In this document: piece by piece, positions 1 through 52,072 of the stretch
Layout of the letters: every line of letters begins with the position of its first letter
Numbering within the stretch: the stretch's first letter is position 1
Origin: a virus
Reading direction: 5' to 3' (one strand)
IMG/VR virus record: IMGVR_UViG_3300025425_000025
Coordinates: 1 to 53,838 of that record
DNA: 53,838 bases
The notes under the pieces: generated by a model
What the model saw: only the letters and a program-made list of their open reading frames with translations
Databases searched by the model: none
Told to the model about the DNA's origin: nothing
Program-made: the position numbers and the translations under genes

Positions 1-405
1 CGTCACACAAAGAATGTTCTAGATGTGTGGGAAGATGGTTTTAAGCAAATCGCTAAGTATGCTGATTCTAAGGCAAGCGAAGAACAAACTAAGCTTCTAG
101 AAGCCGTTAATTACCGGATTGTTGATATAGATAAGACGGTAACTAATGAAAGTGAGGCTGATAGGGATTTGCGCCGGTCAAAAGAGGCTAGTGCATTCCT
201 TACCTCTAAGCTGGCATTGCCAGTAGTATCCAAGAAGCTGGTTGAAAGTATCAAATCTAGCTTCATTGTTGCTGAAAAGCGCCCGATTGATAGTTTGTTT
301 GATTGCGTTACAGCAGTAACGGAACATGCAAAGACTATTAAGTTTCAAGATGAACGGATTAAGTTGGAAACTGCGGGTGGTAAGCTTATGCGGTTGATCA
401 ACTAG
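1..405 (+). CDS. DUF932-like phage protein, C-terminal part (5' end cut by window edge)
   Basis: The frame is open from base 1, so the gene begins outside the window; a GTG at 25 is internal. The last 40 residues, with the pattern SLFDCVTAVTEHAKTI, then QDERIKLETAGGKLM, resemble the C-terminal end of DUF932/phage DUF945-type proteins as I remember them. These are abundant on phages and plasmids and of unknown biochemical function. It is followed directly by a block of three stem-loops. The family call is by eye and could be wrong; the coding call is firm. Confidence 0.6.
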   Translation, partial: RHTKNVLDVWEDGFKQIAKYADSKASEEQTKLLEAVNYRIVDIDKTVTNESEADRDLRRSKEASAFLTSKLALPVVSKKLVESIKSSFIVAEKRPIDSLFDCVTAVTEHAKTIKFQDERIKLETAGGKLMRLIN

Positions 406-407
406 AG

Positions 408-577
408 GTCATACATTCTAAGTCTAGGCGGGGTAATTCTTGCCTAGGCTTATTGAGTATGACGATAAAATTAAAATACATGATTAGCTCACCCTAATAA
501 TGGGCTAACTACAAGTCATGTATCCCTAGCTAACGAGGTTTAAAAGCTAAGTTATACAAGCTTAGTCGTTTGTTAGC
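408..577 (+). other. Block of three consecutive two-stem hairpins
   Basis: Three hairpins lie head to tail in the gap after the first gene. Hairpin 1 pairs GTCATAC (408-414) with GTATGAC (457-463) around an inner stem AAGTCTAGGC (420-429) / GCCTAGGCTT (442-451, one mismatch). Hairpin 2 pairs ATACATGA (476-483) with TCATGTAT (516-523) around TTAGC/CCC : GGGCTAA. Hairpin 3 pairs GCTAAC (529-534) with GTTAGC (572-577) around CTAAG/CTTAG. None ends in a clear U tract, so they are not ordinary terminators. RNA processing sites or a structured RNA are the likeliest readings. Confidence 0.55.
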
Positions 578-617
578 GTACTCGACTTAATTCCAAACCA
601 TTTAGGAGAATGGTAAA

Positions 618-692
618 ATGAAACTAACAAAACCGCAACAGAACGCATTGTTGAAGGTCTTTAACCGGCATGATAGGAGAGTTTCAATATGA
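618..692 (+). CDS. 24-residue peptide, possible N-terminal remnant
   Basis: The ATG at 618 follows TTAGGAGAATGGTAAA, a good Shine-Dalgarno. The reading MKLTKPQQNALLKVFNRH looks like the start of a longer phage protein that stops after 24 codons. Its stop overlaps the next start (ATG at 689). It is either a short leader coupled to the next gene or a truncated gene; which one cannot be decided here. Confidence 0.35.
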   Translation: MKLTKPQQNALLKVFNRHDRRVSI

Positions 693-865
693 AGTATGAA
701 ATCCGTGATGGTAAAGGCGAGGCTGTAGATACCACCATGATCGAAGATCAAGCTATTGAGAAGGTCAAAGCGCTTAAGGTGGCCACTCCTAAGGCTGATT
801 TCATGGTTGTCCAACTGGTGCCAGTGTATGACACTTCTAACCCACCTGTTGAAATTGAGTTTTGA
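689..865 (+). CDS. Hypothetical small protein, 58 aa
   Basis: The start at 689 is preceded by AGGAGAG (675-681). The product is mixed-charge and soluble (starts MKYEIRDGKGEAVD, ends PVYDTSNPPVEIEF) with no motif I recognise. It overlaps the stop of the 24-codon frame upstream, so the two are probably translationally coupled. Codon use looks like its A+T-rich neighbours. Confidence 0.65.
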   Translation: MKYEIRDGKGEAVDTTMIEDQAIEKVKALKVATPKADFMVVQLVPVYDTSNPPVEIEF

Positions 866-912
866 TAAAAGGCAAAGGTCTTTTCTGTTGATGAAATATG
901 AGTGTAAATAAG

Positions 913-1002
913 ATGAATTATGATCTTAGACAGTACATAGCGTTTAACATTATAGGAGGTATTATAATCCTAGCCCTATTCGGACTAGCGTATCTAAGTT
1001 AG
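913..1002 (+). CDS. Tiny single-span membrane peptide, 29 aa
   Basis: Reads MNYDLRQYIAFNIIGG followed by a hydrophobic stretch IIILALFGLAYLS, i.e. one membrane span. The Shine-Dalgarno is weak. It sits in a run of tiny early-type genes, next to a second one-span peptide. Function unknown; could be a host-membrane modulator. Confidence 0.4.
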   Translation: MNYDLRQYIAFNIIGGIIILALFGLAYLS

Positions 1003-1042
1003 CTAATATTTAGGGGATTGTGAGTTAATGAAAGGGGAGAGT

Positions 1043-1123
1043 ATGAAAACACCGGTCAGAACTGCCATAATTTTTTGTATAGTTGTGTCTGTCTTGTTAT
1101 ATGTCTTTCTTGCAATGTATTAA
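1043..1123 (+). CDS. Tiny single-span membrane peptide, 26 aa
   Basis: Starts at the ATG after AAGGGGAGAGT; an in-frame ATG 15 bases upstream lies before that Shine-Dalgarno and is disfavoured. After MKTPVRT, residues 8-26 are almost wholly hydrophobic (AIIFCIVVSVLLYVFLAMY), one predicted membrane span with N-terminal positive charge. Function unknown. Confidence 0.45.
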   Translation: MKTPVRTAIIFCIVVSVLLYVFLAMY

Positions 1124-1194
1124 TTAGTTTCTACGCGCAGGTAGGAAAAGGCAAATTGACGCGCGTAACGGTAAAATTAACCAAGGAGAAAGAA

Positions 1195-1509
1195 ATGTTT
1201 AGCTACAAAACAAAAGAGCTAATTCCTGATTTCACTAATCGGCTTATTGCTTTTGTTAAGACTAAAAACCCTAAGGAAGAATACCATTCACTTAATCTTA
1301 CGGAATGTGCCTTAGGCCAGTTCGTGGCCACATATGGATATGTTGGCCAGTCCACTTTTTTTATGGATAAAACTAAGCAGTACGTGCAATATTATAACAC
1401 TACTCTATACCATACTGTACTTGGTTACAGTCCTGTTGATCCTGATACGTATAAGGTTAGTACTCATACATTTGGTGATCTTGCTAAGAGGTTAGAATTG
1501 GTATACTAA
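1195..1509 (+). CDS. Hypothetical protein, 104 aa
   Basis: The start was chosen at 1195 because CCAAGGAGAAAGAA precedes it directly; the frame is open further upstream but with no ribosome-binding site. The product (MFSYKTKELIPDFTNRL...) is rich in Tyr and Thr, soluble, with no recognised domain. It is followed by a strong hairpin that precedes the next gene. Confidence 0.7.
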   Translation: MFSYKTKELIPDFTNRLIAFVKTKNPKEEYHSLNLTECALGQFVATYGYVGQSTFFMDKTKQYVQYYNTTLYHTVLGYSPVDPDTYKVSTHTFGDLAKRLELVY

Positions 1510-1516
1510 TCCCTCT

Positions 1517-1568
1517 ATTAATCATTCTATAGGGAGCTTGAAATATAGCTCTCTATATTGGGATTAAT
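1517..1568 (+). other. Intergenic two-stem hairpin before a ribosome-binding site
   Basis: ATTAATC (1517-1523) pairs with GATTAAT (1562-1568). Inside, ATAGGGAGCT (1529-1538) pairs with AGCTCTCTAT (1547-1556) with one wobble or mismatch. The AAAGGAG of the next gene begins three bases after the outer stem. Same architecture as the hairpins at 408-577 and 1993-2044. Confidence 0.6.
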
Positions 1569-1584
1569 ACAAAAGGAGTATCCC

Positions 1585-1992
1585 ATGAAGAAAGTTAGAC
1601 GAGAGTTAGTTAATTGGGCTAAACGCAATAACATTGATTTAGTTATTGAGCAACGCTCTAAACATTGCCTTCTTGACGTGTCAAGCAGCCTTGTTGTTAC
1701 GGTGAATTATCTTTTGAAGGATATGTATAATTTCGATTATACCTCATATGACACCTTGTCAGATGCATTTGACGGCTTTGCAGCGATAGGGGCTGCTATT
1801 ATCGCTCTTGAAACTGAGGTAAAGAAGAATAATAAGTATACAGTAGACGATGAACAGTATGTACATCTTGCTGTTGATCTAATGTCTGGTATTGGGTATT
1901 TTGTGTTTATGGAGCACTTGTCAGAGTTCTTTTCTTATGCACAACAAAAGGCAAGAGAGGCTTATACTGATTCTCTACTTCTGCTCAGCTAG
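1585..1992 (+). CDS. Hypothetical helical protein, 135 aa
   Basis: The ATG at 1585 follows AAAAGGAGTATCCC, so the upstream in-frame start (1558) is rejected. The N-terminus is basic (MKKVRRELVNWAKRNN); the middle and C-terminal parts look all-helical (LSDAFDGFAAIGAAIIALE, HLAVDLMSGIGYFVFMEHL). No family recognised. It is flanked on both sides by two-stem hairpins. Confidence 0.7.
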   Translation: MKKVRRELVNWAKRNNIDLVIEQRSKHCLLDVSSSLVVTVNYLLKDMYNFDYTSYDTLSDAFDGFAAIGAAIIALETEVKKNNKYTVDDEQYVHLAVDLMSGIGYFVFMEHLSEFFSYAQQKAREAYTDSLLLLS

Positions 1993-2044
1993 GTTAAACT
2001 TACTGGCAGGATCAATTAACTTTGGTCTTGCTACTTGGTTTAAC
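1993..2044 (+). other. Intergenic long hairpin before a ribosome-binding site
   Basis: Starts on the base after the stop codon. GTTAAAC (1993-1999) pairs with GTTTAAC (2038-2044). The inner arm TGGCAGGATCAA pairs with TTTGGTCTTGCTA over about 12 pairs including G-U. AAAGGAG follows immediately. The fit of the hairpin exactly between stop codon and Shine-Dalgarno suggests a processing or translation-control element. Confidence 0.6.
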
Positions 2045-2060
2045 AAAGGAGAAAACCAAA

Positions 2061-2111
2061 ATGTATGACTATGTTATTTTAGGCCCTATTGGGGCGTATG
2101 GTGAGCGTTGA
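2061..2111 (+). pseudogene. Possible N-terminal remnant of an FAD/NAD(P)-dependent reductase
   Basis: Well placed after AAAGGAGAAAACCAAA, the frame reads MYDYVILGPIGAYGER and stops. The first residues look like the opening beta strand and glycine-rich turn of a Rossmann FAD-binding domain. A clear C-terminal piece of a thioredoxin-reductase-like protein lies at 2681-3016, so this may be the 5' stump of the same gene. The stump is short, and chance resemblance is possible. The stop coincides with the -35 of an inserted promoter. Confidence 0.35.
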
Positions 2112-2135
2112 CACCATCCAACCAGCATGTATGAT
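2108..2135 (+). promoter_or_regulatory. Sigma70-like promoter of the inserted G+C-rich gene
   Basis: TTGACA (2108-2113), 16 bp spacer, TATGAT (2130-2135), matching 6/6 and 5/6 of the consensus. It lies at the left border of the G+C-rich block and reads into the gene at 2161. That gives the cassette its own expression signal. Confidence 0.6.
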
Positions 2136-2160
2136 GGGGACATCGAAACAGGAGGACGAC

Positions 2161-2448
2161 ATGACCAACCGCACCACATTCCAGATTGGCCGCACCCACA
2201 AATTCTCTGCCAACGTCACCAGCCAAATCACTTGGTCAGATACCAAGTCCATCGCAGGCGTTAAGGCCTGGGCTCGCGACGAAGCGACCGGCCACTATGT
2301 CCGCGTATTCGAAACTGGCCCCACCGAGTGGGTCGATAACGAGCCGCAGGCTTGGTCAACGGGCAACTTTGAGACTGTTGCCGATGCCCAGCGGTGGGCG
2401 AGCGCTGCCTACCATTGGATCAATAAGAACCGGAGGGCGGCGGCGTGA
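2161..2448 (+). CDS. G+C-rich cargo ('moron') protein, 95 aa
   Basis: ATG at 2161 follows CAGGAGGACGAC, a near-perfect Shine-Dalgarno. The base composition jumps visibly: G/C-ending codons dominate here against A/T-ending codons on both sides. The product starts MTNRTTFQIGRTHKFSANV, contains WVDNEPQAWSTG and FETVADAQRWASAAYHWI, and ends KNRRAAA; it is soluble, with no known domain. With its own promoter upstream and a G+C-rich hairpin downstream it has the form of a moron gene. Codon use suggests recent transfer from a high-G+C bacterium. Confidence 0.75.
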   Translation: MTNRTTFQIGRTHKFSANVTSQITWSDTKSIAGVKAWARDEATGHYVRVFETGPTEWVDNEPQAWSTGNFETVADAQRWASAAYHWINKNRRAAA

Positions 2449-2455
2449 GCCCCTC
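2433..2455 (+). terminator. Terminator-like hairpin ending the cargo cassette
   Basis: GAGGGC (2433-2438) pairs with GCCCCTC (2449-2455, one bulged C) around a G+C-rich loop. TTCCTTC follows, only a poor U tract. It overlaps the stop codon region of the cargo gene. Reasonable but weak as an intrinsic terminator. Confidence 0.35.
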
Positions 2456-2479
2456 TTCCTTCACCGAGGCAACTAGACT

Positions 2480-2674
2480 ATGATAAAGATTGTAAAGAAC
2501 ACTATCGTAGTCGGTGACATTGTTATTATTACTGATACTGACAATGAAGGTGAGGTACTTGCGATAGAGGATCAACCTAATAAGTTTGATTATATGTGCA
2601 AACATGCTTATGTAATGTTTGAAGATAATTCAGACTGGATTGAATTAACAAACTTGGAGTTAGTGGATGGATAA
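2480..2674 (+). CDS. Hypothetical small beta-rich protein, 64 aa
   Basis: Starts MIKIVKNTIVVGDIVIITD and has the alternating hydrophobic pattern of a small SH3/KOW-like barrel (DIVIITDTDNEGEVLAI ... AYVMFEDNSDWIELTNLELV). A/T-rich codon use resumes here, so it is native to the phage rather than part of the cargo gene. It lies between the two putative reductase fragments. Its role is unknown. Confidence 0.65.
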   Translation: MIKIVKNTIVVGDIVIITDTDNEGEVLAIEDQPNKFDYMCKHAYVMFEDNSDWIELTNLELVDG

Positions 2675-2680
2675 GAAAAG

Positions 2681-3016
2681 ATGGACAGTTACGATTGCAT
2701 GTGTATTTTTATCGGAGCTTCACCTAGAACGCTTTGGCTTGAAGAGACTTTAAATCTGTCTAGTAATAAATATATTCTTACTGGATTTGATTTGTTACAG
2801 GATCAAATGTTCTGCTCAGCTAATGGCATAGCGAAGGAAAGCCCCATAGATGGCTCAGGAACGCCGATTATACCTCTCCCCTATGAGACTAGCCTGTCAG
2901 GCGTGTTTGCTGCTGGTGACGTGCGTAGCGGCTCTACAAAGCGTGTTGCGGTTGCGGCTGGTGAAGGTGCCGGGGCGTTGCAGAATGTTCATAAATATCT
3001 AAGTGGATTGGAATAA
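2681..3016 (+). pseudogene. Thioredoxin-reductase-like C-terminal fragment
   Basis: The 111 residues match the last third of pyridine-nucleotide disulfide reductases: FIGASPRTLWLEE, ILTGFDLL, then ETSLSGVFAAGDVRSGSTKR and VAVAAGEGAGALQNVHKYL. This is the conserved FAD-contacting GVFAAGD motif and final helix. Full-length relatives have about 300 or more residues. The FAD Rossmann fold, NADPH domain and redox CxxC are all absent. The ATG at 2681 has only a weak Shine-Dalgarno. Most likely the 3' remnant of a broken gene; a stand-alone function is not excluded. Confidence 0.65.
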
Positions 3017-3180
3017 TGAAAAGAGAAACAAAAGCTATAGTTCAAGATTATGCAACTACGGACGTTCTACCTGAATTTGTAGAAAGTGTCAGGAAACGTA
3101 CTATTAAAGAAGCAGTACATAAAGGAACCCATAACTTTGAAACGTTTTATGGTGATCCAGAGGATTATAAATCCAAATAA
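3016..3180 (+). CDS. Hypothetical small protein, 54 aa
   Basis: Start overlaps the previous stop (TAATG), indicating translational coupling. The product is charged and helical (MKRETKAIVQDYATTDVLPE ... ends GDPEDYKSK). It is the last gene of the left + strand block and is followed by a strong terminator. Confidence 0.6.
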   Translation: MKRETKAIVQDYATTDVLPEFVESVRKRTIKEAVHKGTHNFETFYGDPEDYKSK

Positions 3181-3207
3181 TTAAACTACCTACTAGGCAA
3201 AATTAAA

Positions 3208-3245
3208 CCCCGCTAAGGATTGATTTCCAAAGCGGGGCTTTTTTT
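3208..3245 (+). terminator. Rho-independent terminator
   Basis: CCCCGCT (3208-3214) pairs with AGCGGGG (3231-3237), followed by C and eight T. It ends the left + strand operon. On the opposite strand the stem is followed by GGTTTAATTTTG-like sequence, so it may also serve the convergent - strand gene. Confidence 0.9.
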
Positions 3246-3259
3246 CGTCTTAAATTTGA

Positions 3260-3505
3260 TTAGAGGCAGCGATCACCGCTAGGCGTGTTATGGACAGTTT
3301 CAGGCAGGACACACACAAGAGGGGCACTCTTCCGCGACGTGCTACCGTTCCAATTCTTCAACGCATCACAGTAACCCTGCGGGGAAGTACCGTCAATACA
3401 GCCCTGCGGGATATGAGTACCAGCAGCAGACACAAGGCCAGCAGTACCAAACAGCATACCAGCAGCGAGAGCAAGAGAAATAATCTTATACATAATATTT
3501 TCCAT
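3260..3505 (-). CDS. Small secreted Cys-containing protein, about 81 aa
   Basis: The N-terminus is a classic signal peptide: MYKIISLALAAGMLFGTAGLV then SAAG, giving an AxA-like cleavage site near residue 28. The mature part is about 53 residues with four Cys (GCIDG, YCDAL, LVCVL, DRCL), enough for two disulfides. The true start may be the second Met (residue 5, position 3493). Such exported phage peptides may act at the host envelope; no family recognised. Confidence 0.7.
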   Translation of the reverse strand: MENIMYKIISLALAAGMLFGTAGLVSAAGTHIPQGCIDGTSPQGYCDALKNWNGSTSRKSAPLVCVLPETVHNTPSGDRCL

Positions 3506-3583
3506 TTCATGTTATGCCCGTTAAAGTTTAATTACATTCTGCTGGGCTACACAGTAATGTAAGTTGGTTTGATTAGTTTTTAG

Positions 3584-3937
3584 TTACTTCTTTGCGGTCT
3601 TAACCTCAGACTTAACTTCCTCAAGAACAGGATCAGCTTCAGACTTAACTTCAGTAGTGATAGGATCAGCCAGACGCCAAATCTGGATTACCTTAGTGCC
3701 ATCCTGTTCAACAGTCCGAGACCCAAACTTACTAGGTGCGCGGGTCTTACTACCACGAGAGAATGCAGTAGCAGATGCACGAGCTTTAATACCACTAGCA
3801 TCATTGGGGAAATCACGATGATCGCCAACTTCAAATTCGTCCCAGTTATGCTTAACAGCAACAGCACGAGACTTAATGGTATCAGGGATATCTGAAATAG
3901 TTCCCTTAACAATACCCTGAAACTTAGGAACAGACAT
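3584..3937 (-). CDS. Hypothetical protein with acidic/basic C-terminal repeats, 117 aa
   Basis: The start is set by CCGGAGTAAATAA just upstream. The first 90 residues look folded (MSVPKFQGIVKGTISDIPD, AVKHNWDEFEVGDHRDFPND). The tail repeats VKSE twice (EVKSEADPVLEEVKSEVKTAKK region) and ends Lys-rich. A consensus-like promoter lies 55 bp upstream, so it heads its own short operon with the secreted gene at 3260. Function unknown; possibly nucleic-acid binding from the basic stretch GSKTRAPSKFGSR. Confidence 0.75.
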   Translation of the reverse strand: MSVPKFQGIVKGTISDIPDTIKSRAVAVKHNWDEFEVGDHRDFPNDASGIKARASATAFSRGSKTRAPSKFGSRTVEQDGTKVIQIWRLADPITTEVKSEADPVLEEVKSEVKTAKK

Positions 3938-3991
3938 TTTATTTACTCCGGTTTGTTGGTTTCAAATTTGCTCTTTCGTGAGCATAGATGA

Positions 3992-4020
3992 CATATAGCC
4001 AATGGTTAGGAACCTGTCAA
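3992..4020 (-). promoter_or_regulatory. Sigma70-like promoter
   Basis: On the - strand TTGACA (4020-4015), exactly 17 bp, TATATG (3997-3992). It faces the gene ending at 3584. The -35 matches 6/6 and the -10 4/6 of the consensus. Confidence 0.65.
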
Positions 4021-4126
4021 GCGCTATTTTGGCATGTTCGCCATTATGGATATGAGCCAGCCCCAAACGACGAAAAAACCCACAATCTTGTATAGGGGGA
4101 TCATTTGACGCTTTCAAAATAATAGT

Positions 4127-4465
4127 CTAGTTATGTCTCCAACCATTAACATGAGCCATTTCATGTTTTAATATACAGGCATTAGCTTTTGAGTTGCCAG
4201 TATCATACAACATAATTAGGGTTTTACCTGTTACTCCACTTTTATAGAAGCAACCATATGCCACATGAGTAACTGGTATTTTACAGAATATTCTAACTCT
4301 TTCCTTATCCTTAGTAAGTACTAGTTCATCTGGCCATTGAGATATATTAGTAACAAATTCATCAGGTGGCACACTAAATGAACAAGGATCAAAGTCTAAT
4401 TCTTGACTAAAGCTAATTGAAGTACTAGCTAATAGTAGTGCTACAGTACACAATATCTTATTCAT
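4127..4465 (-). CDS. Secreted metzincin-type zinc protein, 112 aa
   Basis: Signal peptide at residues 1-20 (MNKILCTVALLLASTSISFS, cleavage before QE). The C-terminus reads KHEMAHVNGWRHN and ends two residues later. It therefore contains a complete HExxHxxGxxH zinc site (H101, E102, H105, H111), the metzincin signature. Cys at 28, 61, 72 and 97 could form disulfides in the periplasm. True metzincins continue to a Met-turn, which is missing here, so this is a minimal or divergent peptidase. It has its own promoter at 4492-4520. Confidence 0.7.
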   Translation of the reverse strand: MNKILCTVALLLASTSISFSQELDFDPCSFSVPPDEFVTNISQWPDELVLTKDKERVRIFCKIPVTHVAYGCFYKSGVTGKTLIMLYDTGNSKANACILKHEMAHVNGWRHN

Positions 4466-4491
4466 CTAGGTAACTCCGGTTCAATGGGTGT

Positions 4492-4520
4492 AGTGTATGG
4501 GCCTTCTGTACCCATGTCAA
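4492..4520 (-). promoter_or_regulatory. Sigma70-like promoter
   Basis: On the - strand TTGACA (4520-4515), 17 bp, TACACT (4497-4492). It lies about 27 bp upstream of the metzincin-like gene and matches the pattern of the other promoters here. Confidence 0.55.
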
Positions 4521-4532
4521 GGAAAAACATAA

Positions 4533-4664
4533 CTATTCTATATCTATCTGTTTTTTATTAACTAGTCTATCGTATTTCTTACGGTCACGAACTATTCTCT
4601 TTCTGAATACTGGGTCTTTAAGTTTGCTTGCTATCGGGTTTCTTTTCTTTATTGTTCTTTTCAT
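4533..4664 (-). CDS. Small basic DUF7230-like protein, 43 aa
   Basis: MKRTIKKRNPIASKLKDPVF then RKRIVRDRKKYDR and a short tail. The KRNPIA-K-L-DP-F-R--V pattern matches a very small basic phage protein family (DUF7230-like as I recall it). Its first 47 bases overlap the 3' end of the Cys-rich gene in another frame. AGGA stands very close to the ATG. Unknown function; strongly basic, so RNA or DNA contact is plausible. Confidence 0.65.
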   Translation of the reverse strand: MKRTIKKRNPIASKLKDPVFRKRIVRDRKKYDRLVNKKQIDIE

Positions 4665-4902
4665 AATCCTGCCATGCAACTAACTTACCGTCTACTATAG
4701 TAGAGAAGAAGAAGATAACATTCTCTTTGTTATGTCCATGCTTAACTACATAGTCAAATATCCACGTAGGTTCTGCTTGGTTATTATAACACTCATTACA
4801 TGTTGGGTAACATGCAGATATCAATGATGACGTTATAATTGATTTAGCCATTCTATCGTGACATACTCCGCAAGGCAGATTTACACAAACTCCACAAGCC
4901 AT
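4618..4902 (-). CDS. Cys-rich putative zinc-binding protein, 94 aa
   Basis: Starts four bases after the thyX stop, with AAAGGAATAGAAAG as Shine-Dalgarno. It has CGVC and CGVCHD in the first 16 residues and then CYPTCNECYN, giving three Cys pairs in zinc-ribbon-like spacing. The C-terminus is Lys-rich. An internal Met at residue 18 would give MAKSIITSSLISAC, which resembles a lipoprotein signal with lipobox ISAC. The zinc-finger reading is preferred because the upstream start is better coupled. Confidence 0.6.
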   Translation of the reverse strand: MACGVCVNLPCGVCHDRMAKSIITSSLISACYPTCNECYNNQAEPTWIFDYVVKHGHNKENVIFFFSTIVDGKLVAWQDYEKNNKEKKPDSKQT

Positions 4903-4906
4903 CTTT

Positions 4907-5605
4907 CTATTCCTTTAAAGCGTTCCAACTATTCGATAACTCTGATAATGACCCAATTTCATTATCCCACTGTTTTGCTAGAAATTGAATTTCTTTTTGT
5001 GCGTGTCCATGTACTCTCTGCTTATAGGCTCTACCCCAAGCTGCAAGGGAGCCAGTAACATAATATGAAGTAAACATAGACTGCGGTAGCATCATTCTAG
5101 CTTGTTCTGGTGCAACATCATTAGCTAACATAGTTTTGTACAGCTTTGTTGCTGAATCTATAAACTCATCATATTCATCATCTATATAGCTATGATTTAA
5201 TATGCGTTCATCATCCGAGCCCTGTTTCTTATCTTGTGAGCGTTTTCTCCAAAAGTCTGGATAATAGAAAACAGGATCATCATCTACATATCGTCGGCTA
5301 ATTTCATTATATGTGAAACCAACCATATGTTTAAATCGCTGTCTAGCAACAAAGATAGGAACTGTCTCTCTCATTTGAATCTGAACATGGCTAAATGGAG
5401 TCCAGTGTCCATTTTTTGCTAGATACTTAATAAGCTTTTTATCTTTATCTGATAATACATAAGATACACTATTATTGTGTATAATATCATCTTCTATTGT
5501 AGTATCCCAAATTGCCTCCCATTCGCTTTCCTTATCAAAGCTTACTCTAGCACTGTTAACAACAGTTAAGTCTGATCCCATATAATCAATTAAGTCTGCC
5601 CGCAT
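4907..5605 (-). CDS. thyX: Flavin-dependent thymidylate synthase ThyX
   Basis: Makes dTMP from dUMP using methylene-tetrahydrofolate, FAD and NADPH. The start was set at 5605 (MRADLIDYMGSDLTVVNSAR) because AAGGAAAATA precedes it; the frame is open further upstream without support. The signature region reads RQRFKHMVGFTYNEISRRY, the KHxVGxxxNExSRRY variant of the ThyX motif (RHRxxSxNExSxRY). About 232 residues, normal for the family. It heads the - strand small operon and complements RNR on the other strand for thymidine supply. Confidence 0.93.
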   Translation of the reverse strand: MRADLIDYMGSDLTVVNSARVSFDKESEWEAIWDTTIEDDIIHNNSVSYVLSDKDKKLIKYLAKNGHWTPFSHVQIQMRETVPIFVARQRFKHMVGFTYNEISRRYVDDDPVFYYPDFWRKRSQDKKQGSDDERILNHSYIDDEYDEFIDSATKLYKTMLANDVAPEQARMMLPQSMFTSYYVTGSLAAWGRAYKQRVHGHAQKEIQFLAKQWDNEIGSLSELSNSWNALKE

Positions 5606-5680
5606 TATTTTCCTTATTTCCGGTTGAACTGGGTCTAGCCTGCCTTTATACCTGTCCCCACCAGAAAAGTCAATAGGGGA

Positions 5681-5710
5681 TTGACAGGAGCCAGCCAATT
5701 GGGTTATAGA
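5681..5710 (+). promoter_or_regulatory. Candidate sigma70-like promoter for the integrase operon
   Basis: TTGACA (5681-5686), 18 bp, TATAGA (5705-5710), or TTATAG at 17 bp spacing. It lies in the divergent gap between thyX and the integrase-side genes and faces the integrase. The -35 is perfect, the -10 moderate. Confidence 0.5.
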
Positions 5711-5763
5711 GATTAAGGCGTTCCATATATGGGAGGCTGGGAACCCTAACAGGAGTTAAACAG

Positions 5764-5871
5764 ATGAAACAGCAAATTCTACAAGGTATTGTGGATAAGA
5801 ATATTGAGACATTCACATTTATTAAGTCCCTTGCTGATAAGTATGATAACAATTCTAAGCTTTCTACTTAG
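5764..5871 (+). CDS. Small protein before the integrase, 35 aa
   Basis: AACAGGAGTTAAACAG precedes the ATG. It reads MKQQILQGIVDKNIETFTF, IKSLADKYDNNSKLST. A second frame opens inside it (5843-5932), ends LLSEKAINEINKELKG and overlaps the integrase start (ATGA at 5929). The two frames could be one frameshifted gene or two overlapping small genes. Function unknown; a position beside the integrase is typical for small regulators, but no helix-turn-helix is visible. Confidence 0.5.
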   Translation: MKQQILQGIVDKNIETFTFIKSLADKYDNNSKLST

Positions 5872-5928
5872 GGTGATTAGTCTACTATCTGAAAAAGCTA
5901 TTAATGAAATCAATAAGGAACTAAAGGG

Positions 5929-6780
5929 ATGAAACTATCAGCATTATTTGACTGGTATAGAGAAACTAGAGAATACAGAAAGCTTGCTACTAATAGTAAG
6001 ATTATGTATGAACAGATGATGCAACATGCTCTTACTAAGTTTATGTTTATGAACAAAGTAGAGCGCATTAATGAAAGAACTGCTGATGATTGGTATGACG
6101 AGTTAGTAGCTACTGGTAAGACTAATAAAGCAGTAGCCACAATGAAAGTACTAAGAAGAATCTGGAATGTTGCTAAGCGTAAGGGAGTTGTGGATAATAA
6201 TCCATTTGAAAAAATGGGGTTAGCTACTCCTGAACCTAGATCACAAGTATGGTCTAAAGACATAATTGAAATGTTTAGGTTAAGAGCACTAAAAGAAGGT
6301 AAGCATAATATATCACTACTAATTGATATGTCTTACAATCTTGGTCAACGGCCCGGTGATCTTATAAAGCTACCTGTAAAAGCCTATAATCAAAAAGATG
6401 AGTATGTTACTATTAAACAACAGAAAACAGGTACTACTGTTCAAATCCCTGTCTATTCACCTTTTAAGGAACGTCTTAAGAATGAGATGAATAATAGGAA
6501 TGTAAGACAATGGGGTACTTTCCTGCCTCAATATCACTACAGTCAATACAATAAAGATTATAGGCTAATTCGTGATCTATTGCTATTGCCTAATACTCTA
6601 CAACTGAGAGACATTAGAAGAACAGTACTAACTGAGATTCTAGAAACTGGTGCAAGTGATGCACAAGGACAGTCAATCAGTGGACACGTTGACCGGGATC
6701 AGCTAAACACCTATGGCCCGTATAATTTGGCTATGGCAAGGTCTGCAATGGAGAAAAGATTTGGAATATCAAAGGCTTAA
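5929..6780 (+). CDS. int: Tyrosine recombinase / integrase, 283 aa
   Basis: Site-specific recombinase expected to join phage attP to host attB. The N-terminal SAM-like core-binding domain is about residues 1-100. The catalytic domain shows R141 (GQRPGDL), K166 (QQKTGTT), R227-xx-R230 (LRDIRRT), H253 (ISGH) and nucleophile Y262 (NTYGPY). Usual enzymes have HxxR; here the His is Arg (R227), a known tolerated variation but notable. No excisionase or repressor is recognised and no attP was found. The phage may be temperate or a relic of one. Confidence 0.92.
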   Translation: MKLSALFDWYRETREYRKLATNSKIMYEQMMQHALTKFMFMNKVERINERTADDWYDELVATGKTNKAVATMKVLRRIWNVAKRKGVVDNNPFEKMGLATPEPRSQVWSKDIIEMFRLRALKEGKHNISLLIDMSYNLGQRPGDLIKLPVKAYNQKDEYVTIKQQKTGTTVQIPVYSPFKERLKNEMNNRNVRQWGTFLPQYHYSQYNKDYRLIRDLLLLPNTLQLRDIRRTVLTEILETGASDAQGQSISGHVDRDQLNTYGPYNLAMARSAMEKRFGISKA

Positions 6781-6798: not shown

Positions 6799-6826
6799 TT
6801 GACAGATTAACTTTTGGGGGTATAAT
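6799..6826 (+). promoter_or_regulatory. Near-consensus promoter of the replication operon
   Basis: TTGACA (6799-6804), 16 bp, TATAAT (6821-6826); both hexamers are perfect. Downstream is a small hairpin CCTGC/GCAGG (6830-6844) at the expected transcript start. It drives the long + strand block beginning at 6891. Confidence 0.85.
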
Positions 6827-17354: not shown

Positions 17355-17548
17355 TGCCAGTAAGTAATAGACGGCTACGTCATGGATATGACATTAAGAA
17401 GGATTTGAATTATCTTGATGTTAAGATATGGATGCCGACTGATGTTAATAATGCACCGATAATTAAGGCTTTTGCTGTATTCGTAGACTTGATAGTAAGA
17501 GCAAACAAACTGGATAAATATAACCGAAAGAGTAAATATGACACTTAA
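17354..17548 (+). CDS. Hypothetical basic protein, 64 aa
   Basis: TAATG overlap with the nuclease gene. MPVSNRRLRHGYDIKKDLNY, hydrophobic middle (APIIKAFAVFVDLIVRAN) and Lys-rich end. Function unknown. Confidence 0.55.
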   Translation: MPVSNRRLRHGYDIKKDLNYLDVKIWMPTDVNNAPIIKAFAVFVDLIVRANKLDKYNRKSKYDT

Positions 17549-18071
17549 AGAAGGCGATATATTTTATAATGACGAGGGTAGCCCCCTAAAGGTACTGAAA
17601 GTTTATTTTGATGCTTCATTTTTAGCTTCGTATAATCTAGAAGAAGAATTTAAAGTTGATGAGGAACACAGATATGAAGCATTCAATGATGTAAATCTGT
17701 ATGCACCTAAGACTACCACTCTACAACCTTCATACGTTGGTCAAGATGGTGCTAATGGTATGAAGTATGATAACGGTAAAGTTCTAGCTTCAATTATTAT
17801 TGATGATTTTCCTAGGGCGCTGAATGCTGTAGCACAAATTGCAACATATGGAGCTAATAAGTATGCTAGGTCATCATGGACTACCGTTCCTGATGCTGAA
17901 ACTAGATACCGTGATGCTATGGTACGACACCAATTAGCCTTTAGTACTGAAGGATTGTATTCTATAGATGAGGAAAGTGGACTACTGCATCTTGCTCATT
18001 TCGCATGGAATGCTTTAGCTATACTAGAACTACAGGAGTTAAAGAAGGACAAGAGCCATAGCAACAATTGA
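17538..18071 (+). CDS. DUF5664 dATP/dGTP diphosphohydrolase-like protein, 177 aa
   Basis: The C-terminal 110 residues fit DUF5664, a MazG-like family: MKYDNGKVLASIIIDDFPRA, ATYGANKYA, RYRDAMVRHQLAF, HLAHFAWNALAILEL. The family includes MazZ, which makes dGMP from dGTP in 2-aminoadenine phages. The N-terminal about 60 residues form an extra beta-rich segment. With HD and MazG enzymes downstream it likely tunes the dNTP pool. PurZ is not in the window, so base replacement is not implied. Confidence 0.8.
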   Translation: MTLKEGDIFYNDEGSPLKVLKVYFDASFLASYNLEEEFKVDEEHRYEAFNDVNLYAPKTTTLQPSYVGQDGANGMKYDNGKVLASIIIDDFPRALNAVAQIATYGANKYARSSWTTVPDAETRYRDAMVRHQLAFSTEGLYSIDEESGLLHLAHFAWNALAILELQELKKDKSHSNN

Positions 18072-18301: not shown

Positions 18302-18901
18302 ATGAAAAGAATAGCTTCTTCTAAGAGGCTGTCTTCAGGAAAGTATGTCAATTTATCCGAACTAACTAAAGATGATATTGATATTGCAGATATTTCACGC
18401 TCACTGAATTATATCTATAGATTTACTGGGCATTGGAAAGATAAGGAACCGCTAACTGTAGCACAACATACACGGTTAGCGGTTCATCTTTCTGGAATTC
18501 TATTTCCTGATGATGCGCTTATTAAGTTAGACGTAACAATTCATGATTTTGCAGAAGCCTATACAGGTGATGTAGCTACCCCACTCAAAAAGCTATTTGG
18601 TATTGGGTTTAAAGATTATGAAAAGGCAATTGAAGATGTTGTCTATGAAAAGCTTTGGGTTGCTAGTAGCCCGCACACAAAAGAAATCTATGAAGCTAGA
18701 AAAATCTGTGATCTATTAGCTCTTGATATTGAGCGTAGAAATCTTTGGTCAAGTCAAACTGGTAAGGATAATTGGCCGGATATTCCACATGAAGGATTAT
18801 TCTCAGTAAAAGAAAAGAAAGATATTTTTGATACTATTGCTAAGGAACGTTATGTTGATATTGAAGCAATGTATTATGACGCAATAAAAGGACTTAAATG
18901 A
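18302..18901 (+). CDS. HD-domain phosphohydrolase (YfbR/DatZ-like), 199 aa
   Basis: Metal-dependent nucleotidase of the HD superfamily. AQHTRLAVH supplies the first His, TIHDFAEAYTGDVATPLK the HD pair and following segment, ICDLLALDIERRN the last Asp. The Q-H-T...HD-AEAYTGD-P-PLK pattern is that of YfbR 5'-nucleotidases and phage DatZ (dATP triphosphohydrolase). Overlaps mazG by four bases. Substrate (dATP or dNMP) is undetermined. Confidence 0.85.
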   Translation: MKRIASSKRLSSGKYVNLSELTKDDIDIADISRSLNYIYRFTGHWKDKEPLTVAQHTRLAVHLSGILFPDDALIKLDVTIHDFAEAYTGDVATPLKKLFGIGFKDYEKAIEDVVYEKLWVASSPHTKEIYEARKICDLLALDIERRNLWSSQTGKDNWPDIPHEGLFSVKEKKDIFDTIAKERYVDIEAMYYDAIKGLK

Positions 18902-51997: not shown

Positions 51998-52072
51998 TGG
52001 CATAGGGTGTAGGATTCGAACCCACATCATACGGGATTGGAAGCCGGTATTTTGCCATTAAACTAACCCTAC
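51998..52072 (-). tRNA. tRNA-Gly (TCC)
   Basis: Acceptor GTAGGGT/ACCCTAT (G-U first pair), loop CTTCCAA, T arm with GGTTCGAATCC, CCA encoded. The anticodon stem ACCGG/CCCGT has a C-C mismatch. Reads GGA. Confidence 0.78.

What the first reader, a model, noticed from the sequence alone, without database searches (positions are those of the whole stretch)
2061..3016. Self-contained moron cassette inside a broken thioredoxin-reductase-like gene
Seen: a perfect -35/TATGAT promoter at 2108-2135, a strong Shine-Dalgarno, a 95-codon gene with visibly higher G+C, and a G+C-rich hairpin at 2433-2455. The block is flanked by an FAD-type N-terminal stump (2061-2111) and a clear reductase C-terminus (2681-3016). 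Known: morons carry their own promoter and terminator and often encode lysogenic conversion or defence functions. Inference: a cargo gene from a high-G+C host entered and destroyed, or sits beside, a redox gene. The product is unrecognised.
Basis: partly seen in the sequence, partly recalled or inferred. Interest (0 to 1): 0.75.

Follow-up and report, generated by a model that had tools for sequence, protein, structure and literature searches.

The report
Borrowed phage gene beside reductase relic
A small gene carrying its own "on" switch was acquired by this phage from a G+C-rich relative and sits two genes upstream of the leftover tail end of a redox enzyme gene; it is a modest, ordinary example of phage gene shuffling, and what the small protein does remains untested.

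Summary
The promoter (TTGACA-16-TATGAT, 2108-2135), strong Shine-Dalgarno and G+C-rich 95-codon gene (2161-2448; GC 59%, GC3 72%) are real. The gene belongs to a known but uncharacterised phage family (phrog_22809), with relatives in Sinorhizobium phages phiM12/phiN3/phiM7/phiM19 and several other phage-like contigs. A sigma-70-like promoter sits 53-71 nt upstream of the gene in the relatives too (weakly in two), so 'own promoter' is a trait of the unit. 'Own terminator' is wrong: the G+C-rich block at 2433-2455 is the Shine-Dalgarno plus overlapping GTG start of the donor's next gene, cut after about 9-12 codons; it folds no better than shuffles. The real terminator is at about 3207-3244. ORF 2681-3016 is a genuine C-terminal relic of a thioredoxin-reductase-like flavoprotein: the other 17 viral relatives are full-length. 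The host genome is an HMO-2011-type podovirus with integrase. New member of a known kind; low interest.

The parts
2061..2111 (+). 16-codon mini-ORF (MYDYVILGPIGAYGER*) behind a good Shine-Dalgarno; claimed FAD stump, not established
   Evidence: similarity to TrxR N-termini ranks about 15th of 941 stop-free ATG 16-mers in the window; shuffle p 0.02-0.29
2108..2135 (+). sigma-70-like promoter TTGACA-N16-TATGAT of the cassette gene
   Evidence: 11/12, best in 1-6000; comparable sites 53-71 nt upstream of the start in relatives
2161..2448 (+). 95-codon G+C-rich gene, phrog_22809 family, function unknown; small basic protein (pI 9.3), secondary structure predicted as three strands and a C-terminal helix at low confidence
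   Evidence: E=4.2e-6; L019 58%; L024 66%; Sinorhizobium phages and others; pI; model, mean pLDDT 55
2432..2483 (+). Shine-Dalgarno GGAGGG (2432-2437) and truncated start of the donor's next gene (GTG 2445, 12 codons, TGA 2481-2483); this is the block read as a terminator hairpin
   Evidence: CCGGAGGGyGGCGGCGTGAGCCCC shared with L024, where GTGAGC begins the next gene, in the frame of the ORF listed at L024:6926-7114 (weak match to phrog_37587); no terminator
2480..2674 (+). 64-codon low-GC ORF between cassette and relic; its ATG overlaps the stub's stop (ATGA); looks SH3-like by eye, not assigned
   Evidence: ORF; GC 0.33; best Pfam MSSS E=0.014, below cut-off; no phage match
2681..3016 (+). 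C-terminal relic (about 107 aa) of a TrxR-like FAD/NAD(P) oxidoreductase; lacks the N-terminal FAD motif and the NADPH domain
   Evidence: near-identical copy in L001/L022 beginning at 2693
3016..3180 (+). 54-codon ORF coupled to the relic (start overlaps its stop)
3207..3244 (+). intrinsic terminator (CCCCGCT...AGCGGGG followed by a T run) that would end the transcription unit
   Evidence: -22 kcal/mol, z -3.4

Best explanation
The block is a fragment of another phage's operon: a sigma-70-type promoter, the 95-codon phrog_22809 gene and the first codons of the next gene. It was brought by illegitimate recombination from a G+C-rich phage, probably of an alphaproteobacterium, into the accessory region left of the integrase in an HMO-2011-type, probably temperate podovirus. 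Host RNA polymerase could transcribe the gene without phage factors. With no terminator of its own, the transcript would run through the 64-codon gene, the reductase relic and the 54-codon gene to the terminator at about 3207-3244. The reductase ORF is a decayed C-terminus that cannot work as an oxidoreductase; its loss need not have been caused by this insert. Shown: homology, promoter-like sites in relatives, truncated next gene, relic status. Inferred: donor type, transcription, decay history, and a guess that the protein is a small nucleic-acid-binding early protein.
For: phrog_22809 match end to end; relatives at 56-67% (L019, L024) and 28-33% (phiN3, L037, L038) in varied phage contexts; 71% nt identity with L024 (205 of 288), shared sequence continuing past the stop into the next gene's start; a promoter-like site upstream of the start in all six loci tested; GC steps at about 2090 and 2480; all other viral TrxR relatives full-length and no further TrxR segment in the window; no terminator at 2433-2455, strong one at 3207-3244; phage type from portal and polymerase and gene order like CRP-3.
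Against: No close relative without the cassette was available, so the insertion event itself is not seen. The fold models are poor (mean pLDDT 48 and 55) and structure searches found nothing, so the function is a guess. The promoter significance treats related phages as independent, uses all ATG/GTG sites as control, and two of the six loci score weakly. An assembly chimera near 2693 cannot be ruled out: the near-identical contig stops exactly there.
Confidence: 0.66

Rival explanations
1. One reading: a moron inserted into an intact TrxR-like gene starting at 2061 and broke it; the 64-codon ORF came in with it or later.
For: A strong SD and a truncated ORF at 2061 starting MYDYVILG, compatible with a Rossmann strand; the missing TrxR length (about 215 codons, from L002) is roughly the 585 nt between 2108 and 2693.
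Against: Stump similarity is not significant; the 64-codon low-GC gene is of different composition from the cassette; no obvious flanking direct repeats at the cassette ends.
Confidence: 0.2
2. The 2681-3016 ORF is a functional, reduced small protein rather than a decaying relic.
For: Open frame, conserved GVFAAGDVRSGSTKR motif intact, stop-start coupling to the 54-codon gene; no difference to L022 across 2693-3016.
Against: No stand-alone short form among the other 17 viral loci; it lacks the FAD GxGxxG motif and the NADPH domain.
Confidence: 0.15
3. The junction near 2680-2693 is an assembly chimera of two phages.
For: The 99.9% identical contig ends at exactly 2693, where TrxR homology begins.
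Against: Tight operon spacing (stop 2674, start 2681), similar base composition on both sides, the end sequence occurs only once in the window.
Confidence: 0.1

Closest known systems
phrog_22809 / Sinorhizobium phage phiM12 gp337 (AB690_gp337) and phiN3 gp169
   Same: About 28% identity over the whole length (phiN3), same size, conserved G-[VF]-[KR]-A-[WF]-A-R-[DN]-E-x-T-G-x-Y core, TTGACA-N17-TATGTT promoter-like site 61 nt upstream in phiM12
   Different: phiM12 and phiN3 are about 200 kb Emdodecaviruses; their downstream gene is unrelated to the stub here
L024 (phage-like contig binned in an Acidobacteria MAG)
   Same: 66-67% aa and 71% nt identity; same gene end, SD and GTG start of the next gene
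   Different: The next gene runs on there and is cut here; no match in 100 other genomes of that MAG's class
Morons of temperate phages (lambda bor and lom, from general knowledge)
   Same: Foreign composition, own promoter, accessory region near the integrase
   Different: No terminator of its own; function unknown
TrxR-like flavoproteins of other viral contigs (L002, L004, L005)
   Same: 38-46% identity to the relic over its last ~107 residues
   Different: Full-length there (about 310-340 aa), only the C-terminal third here; those relatives show no CxxC at the TrxR active-site position (read)
HMO-2011-type phages (CRP-3, CRP-235, phiM6; PMC9038755, PMC6256558)
   Same: Portal 55-58% and DNA polymerase up to 51% identity, integrase, ThyX, MazG and ribonucleotide reductase; CRP-3 is reported to integrate into its host genome (PMC9038755)
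   Different: The left accessory region with cassette and relic has no counterpart in CRP-3, where the integrase starts at 448

Membership tests
phrog_22809 | Whole-length profile match | tested here: met
   E=4.2e-6, residues 7-90, profile 3-88 of 91
Moron | Own promoter | tested here: met
   (sequence only; transcription not tested)
Moron | Own terminator | tested here: not met
Moron | Base composition unlike the rest of the phage | tested here: met
Moron | Absent from close relatives at the same locus | tested here: inconclusive
   CRP-3 lacks the whole region, but no close relative covers this locus; L022 ends at 2693
Moron | Expressed from the prophage | not testable with these tools
   needs RNA data
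Thioredoxin reductase | C-terminal FAD-domain motif (GVFAAGD) | tested here: met
Thioredoxin reductase | N-terminal FAD motif, NADPH domain and CxxC | tested here: not met
Arm DNA-binding domain (PF13356) | Profile match above the curated cut-off | tested here: not met
   one relative only, L034, E=0.007, 16.9 bits against a cut-off of 27; none for the window protein
HMO-2011-type phages | Homologous polymerase and portal, shared gene order | tested here: met

The most novel reading that the evidence does not exclude
The promoter plus phrog_22809 gene is a tiny mobile unit of phages of alphaproteobacteria that spreads between unrelated phage types and encodes an early DNA-binding (arm/AP2-like) host-takeover or superinfection protein.
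Probability: 0.12. Interest if true: 0.45.

Novelty: new member of a known kind. Interest (0 to 1): 0.2.

Why it matters
It ties an uncharacterised phage gene family to a promoter-like site that recurs ahead of it in different phages, giving a small, testable early gene. Otherwise it is a routine case of phage mosaicism with a decayed metabolic gene next to it.

Tried and rejected
Looking for close relatives spanning the locus: only the near-identical L022, which ends at 2693; an exact search for the 2061 start found nothing. Terminator at 2433-2455: rejected. FAD stump: not significant. Rest of the reductase elsewhere in the window: not found. Homology of the 64-codon ORF to the reductase: it is in the same frame as the relic, and one alignment ran on across its stop by a few residues, but its sequence reads as a complete small protein; judged chance. 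Defence function: no PADLOC match. Fold: two models with mean pLDDT 48 and 55, no significant structure match. PDB sequence hits for the family at E 0.02 and above (mostly GFP variants) treated as chance. Acidobacteria origin of L024: the contig looks viral and the family is absent from 100 other genomes of the class. Plasmids: no match.

Full report
Observation. The promoter TTGACA-N16-TATGAT at 2108-2135 is the strongest consensus match in the first 6 kb; the whole window holds seven sites of 11/12 or better on both strands with spacers of 15-19. The AGGAGG and the 95-codon ORF at 2161-2448 are there. The ORF's GC is 0.594 and GC3 0.719 against a window average of 0.384 and GC3 of 0.18-0.44 for other genes. 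GC steps up at about 2090 and down at about 2480.

What the gene is. It matches phrog_22809 over its whole length. Relatives: L019/L034 (58%), L024 (66%; a phage-like contig with a phage-type methyltransferase and other PHROG matches, sitting in an Acidobacteria MAG), Sinorhizobium phages phiM12, phiM7, phiM19 and phiN3 (found with the L019 protein), and L037 and L038. Identity to the window protein is 56, 67, 28, 31 and 33% for L034, L024, L035 (phiN3), L037 and L038. Family function is unknown; PADLOC gives nothing. The model (mean pLDDT 55) suggests strands at 33-39, 46-52 and 65-70 and a helix at 73-94; one relative scores weakly against an integrase arm-binding domain (E=0.007, under the cut-off). 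A DNA-binding role is a guess only.

Its promoter. In all six loci examined (window, L024, L034, phiM12, L037, L038) a sigma-70-like site lies 53-71 nt upstream of the start. The fraction of ATG/GTG sites in each locus with an equal or better site is 0.0013, 0.0076, 0.041, 0.0078, 0.0033 and 0.093; combined p about 2e-7. This overstates the case, because phiM12 and L037 are related and genuine gene starts would be a stricter control.

Not a terminator. At 2431-2453 the window reads CGGAGGGCGGCGGCGTGAGCCCC; L024 has the same with one difference, and there GGAGGG and GTGAGC lead into the next gene, overlapping the stop. In the window that frame ends after 12 codons (MSPSSFTEATRL*), with its stop overlapping the ATG of the next ORF. 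The RNA of 2415-2490 folds no better than shuffles (z 0.16) and has no U-tract. The unit's real terminator is at 3207-3244 (z -3.4). So the cassette is a cut-out of a donor operon rather than a self-contained unit.

The reductase relic. ORF 2681-3016 matches the last 40 positions of TRX_reduct and is 46% identical to L002 over 106 alignment columns. In the 17 viral loci other than L001 (the same phage), the relative is part of a full-length protein of about 310 aa or more. Hence it is a C-terminal relic. The closest full-length relatives (L002-L006) have no CxxC at the TrxR position, read directly from the sequences, so the ancestor may not have been a true thioredoxin reductase.

Was it destroyed by the cassette? 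A complete 64-codon, low-GC ORF (2480-2674) separates the two, and the stump at 2061 scores no better than about 15th of 941 ATG 16-mers. The near-identical contig L022 (8 differences in 11,114 bases) ends at exactly 2693, where reductase homology starts; this may mark a variable locus in that sample or a chance contig end, and it leaves a small possibility of misassembly. Disruption by this insert is therefore open.

Setting. Portal and polymerase place the phage with the HMO-2011 type; gene order resembles temperate CRP-3 (integration of CRP-3 is reported in PMC9038755), with an extra region of about 5 kb left of the integrase in which the cassette lies.

Noticed in passing
window 51998-52072: tRNA gene that ARAGORN gives a four-base anticodon (tcca), in a cluster of 12 tRNA genes; Rfam also calls it a tRNA (52 bits). 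Possible frameshift-suppressor tRNA.
   Followed up: no
window 17538-18071 and 18302-18901: dATP/dGTP diphosphohydrolase-like (PF18909, E=8e-24) and YfbR-like (weak, E=0.0024) proteins next to MazG and RNR; recalls, from memory, the MazZ/DatZ pair of 2-aminoadenine phages; PurZ was not looked for.
   Followed up: no
window 1979-1991 and 2810-2822: Exact 13-nt direct repeat TTCTGCTCAGCTA, only these two copies in the window, the second inside the reductase relic.
   Followed up: partly
window 3194-3245: The terminator region is 83% identical over 52 nt to a stretch of Roseobacter phage CRP-4.
   Followed up: no
window 6799-6826: Perfect 12/12 sigma-70 promoter match (TTGACA-N16-TATAAT) just after the integrase gene.
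   Followed up: no
L019:4645-4668 and 5907-5930: Repeated palindromic stretch ATTTTTGGTATTGCCAAAAA upstream of two genes, one of them the phrog_22809 relative; looks like a repressor operator.
   Followed up: no
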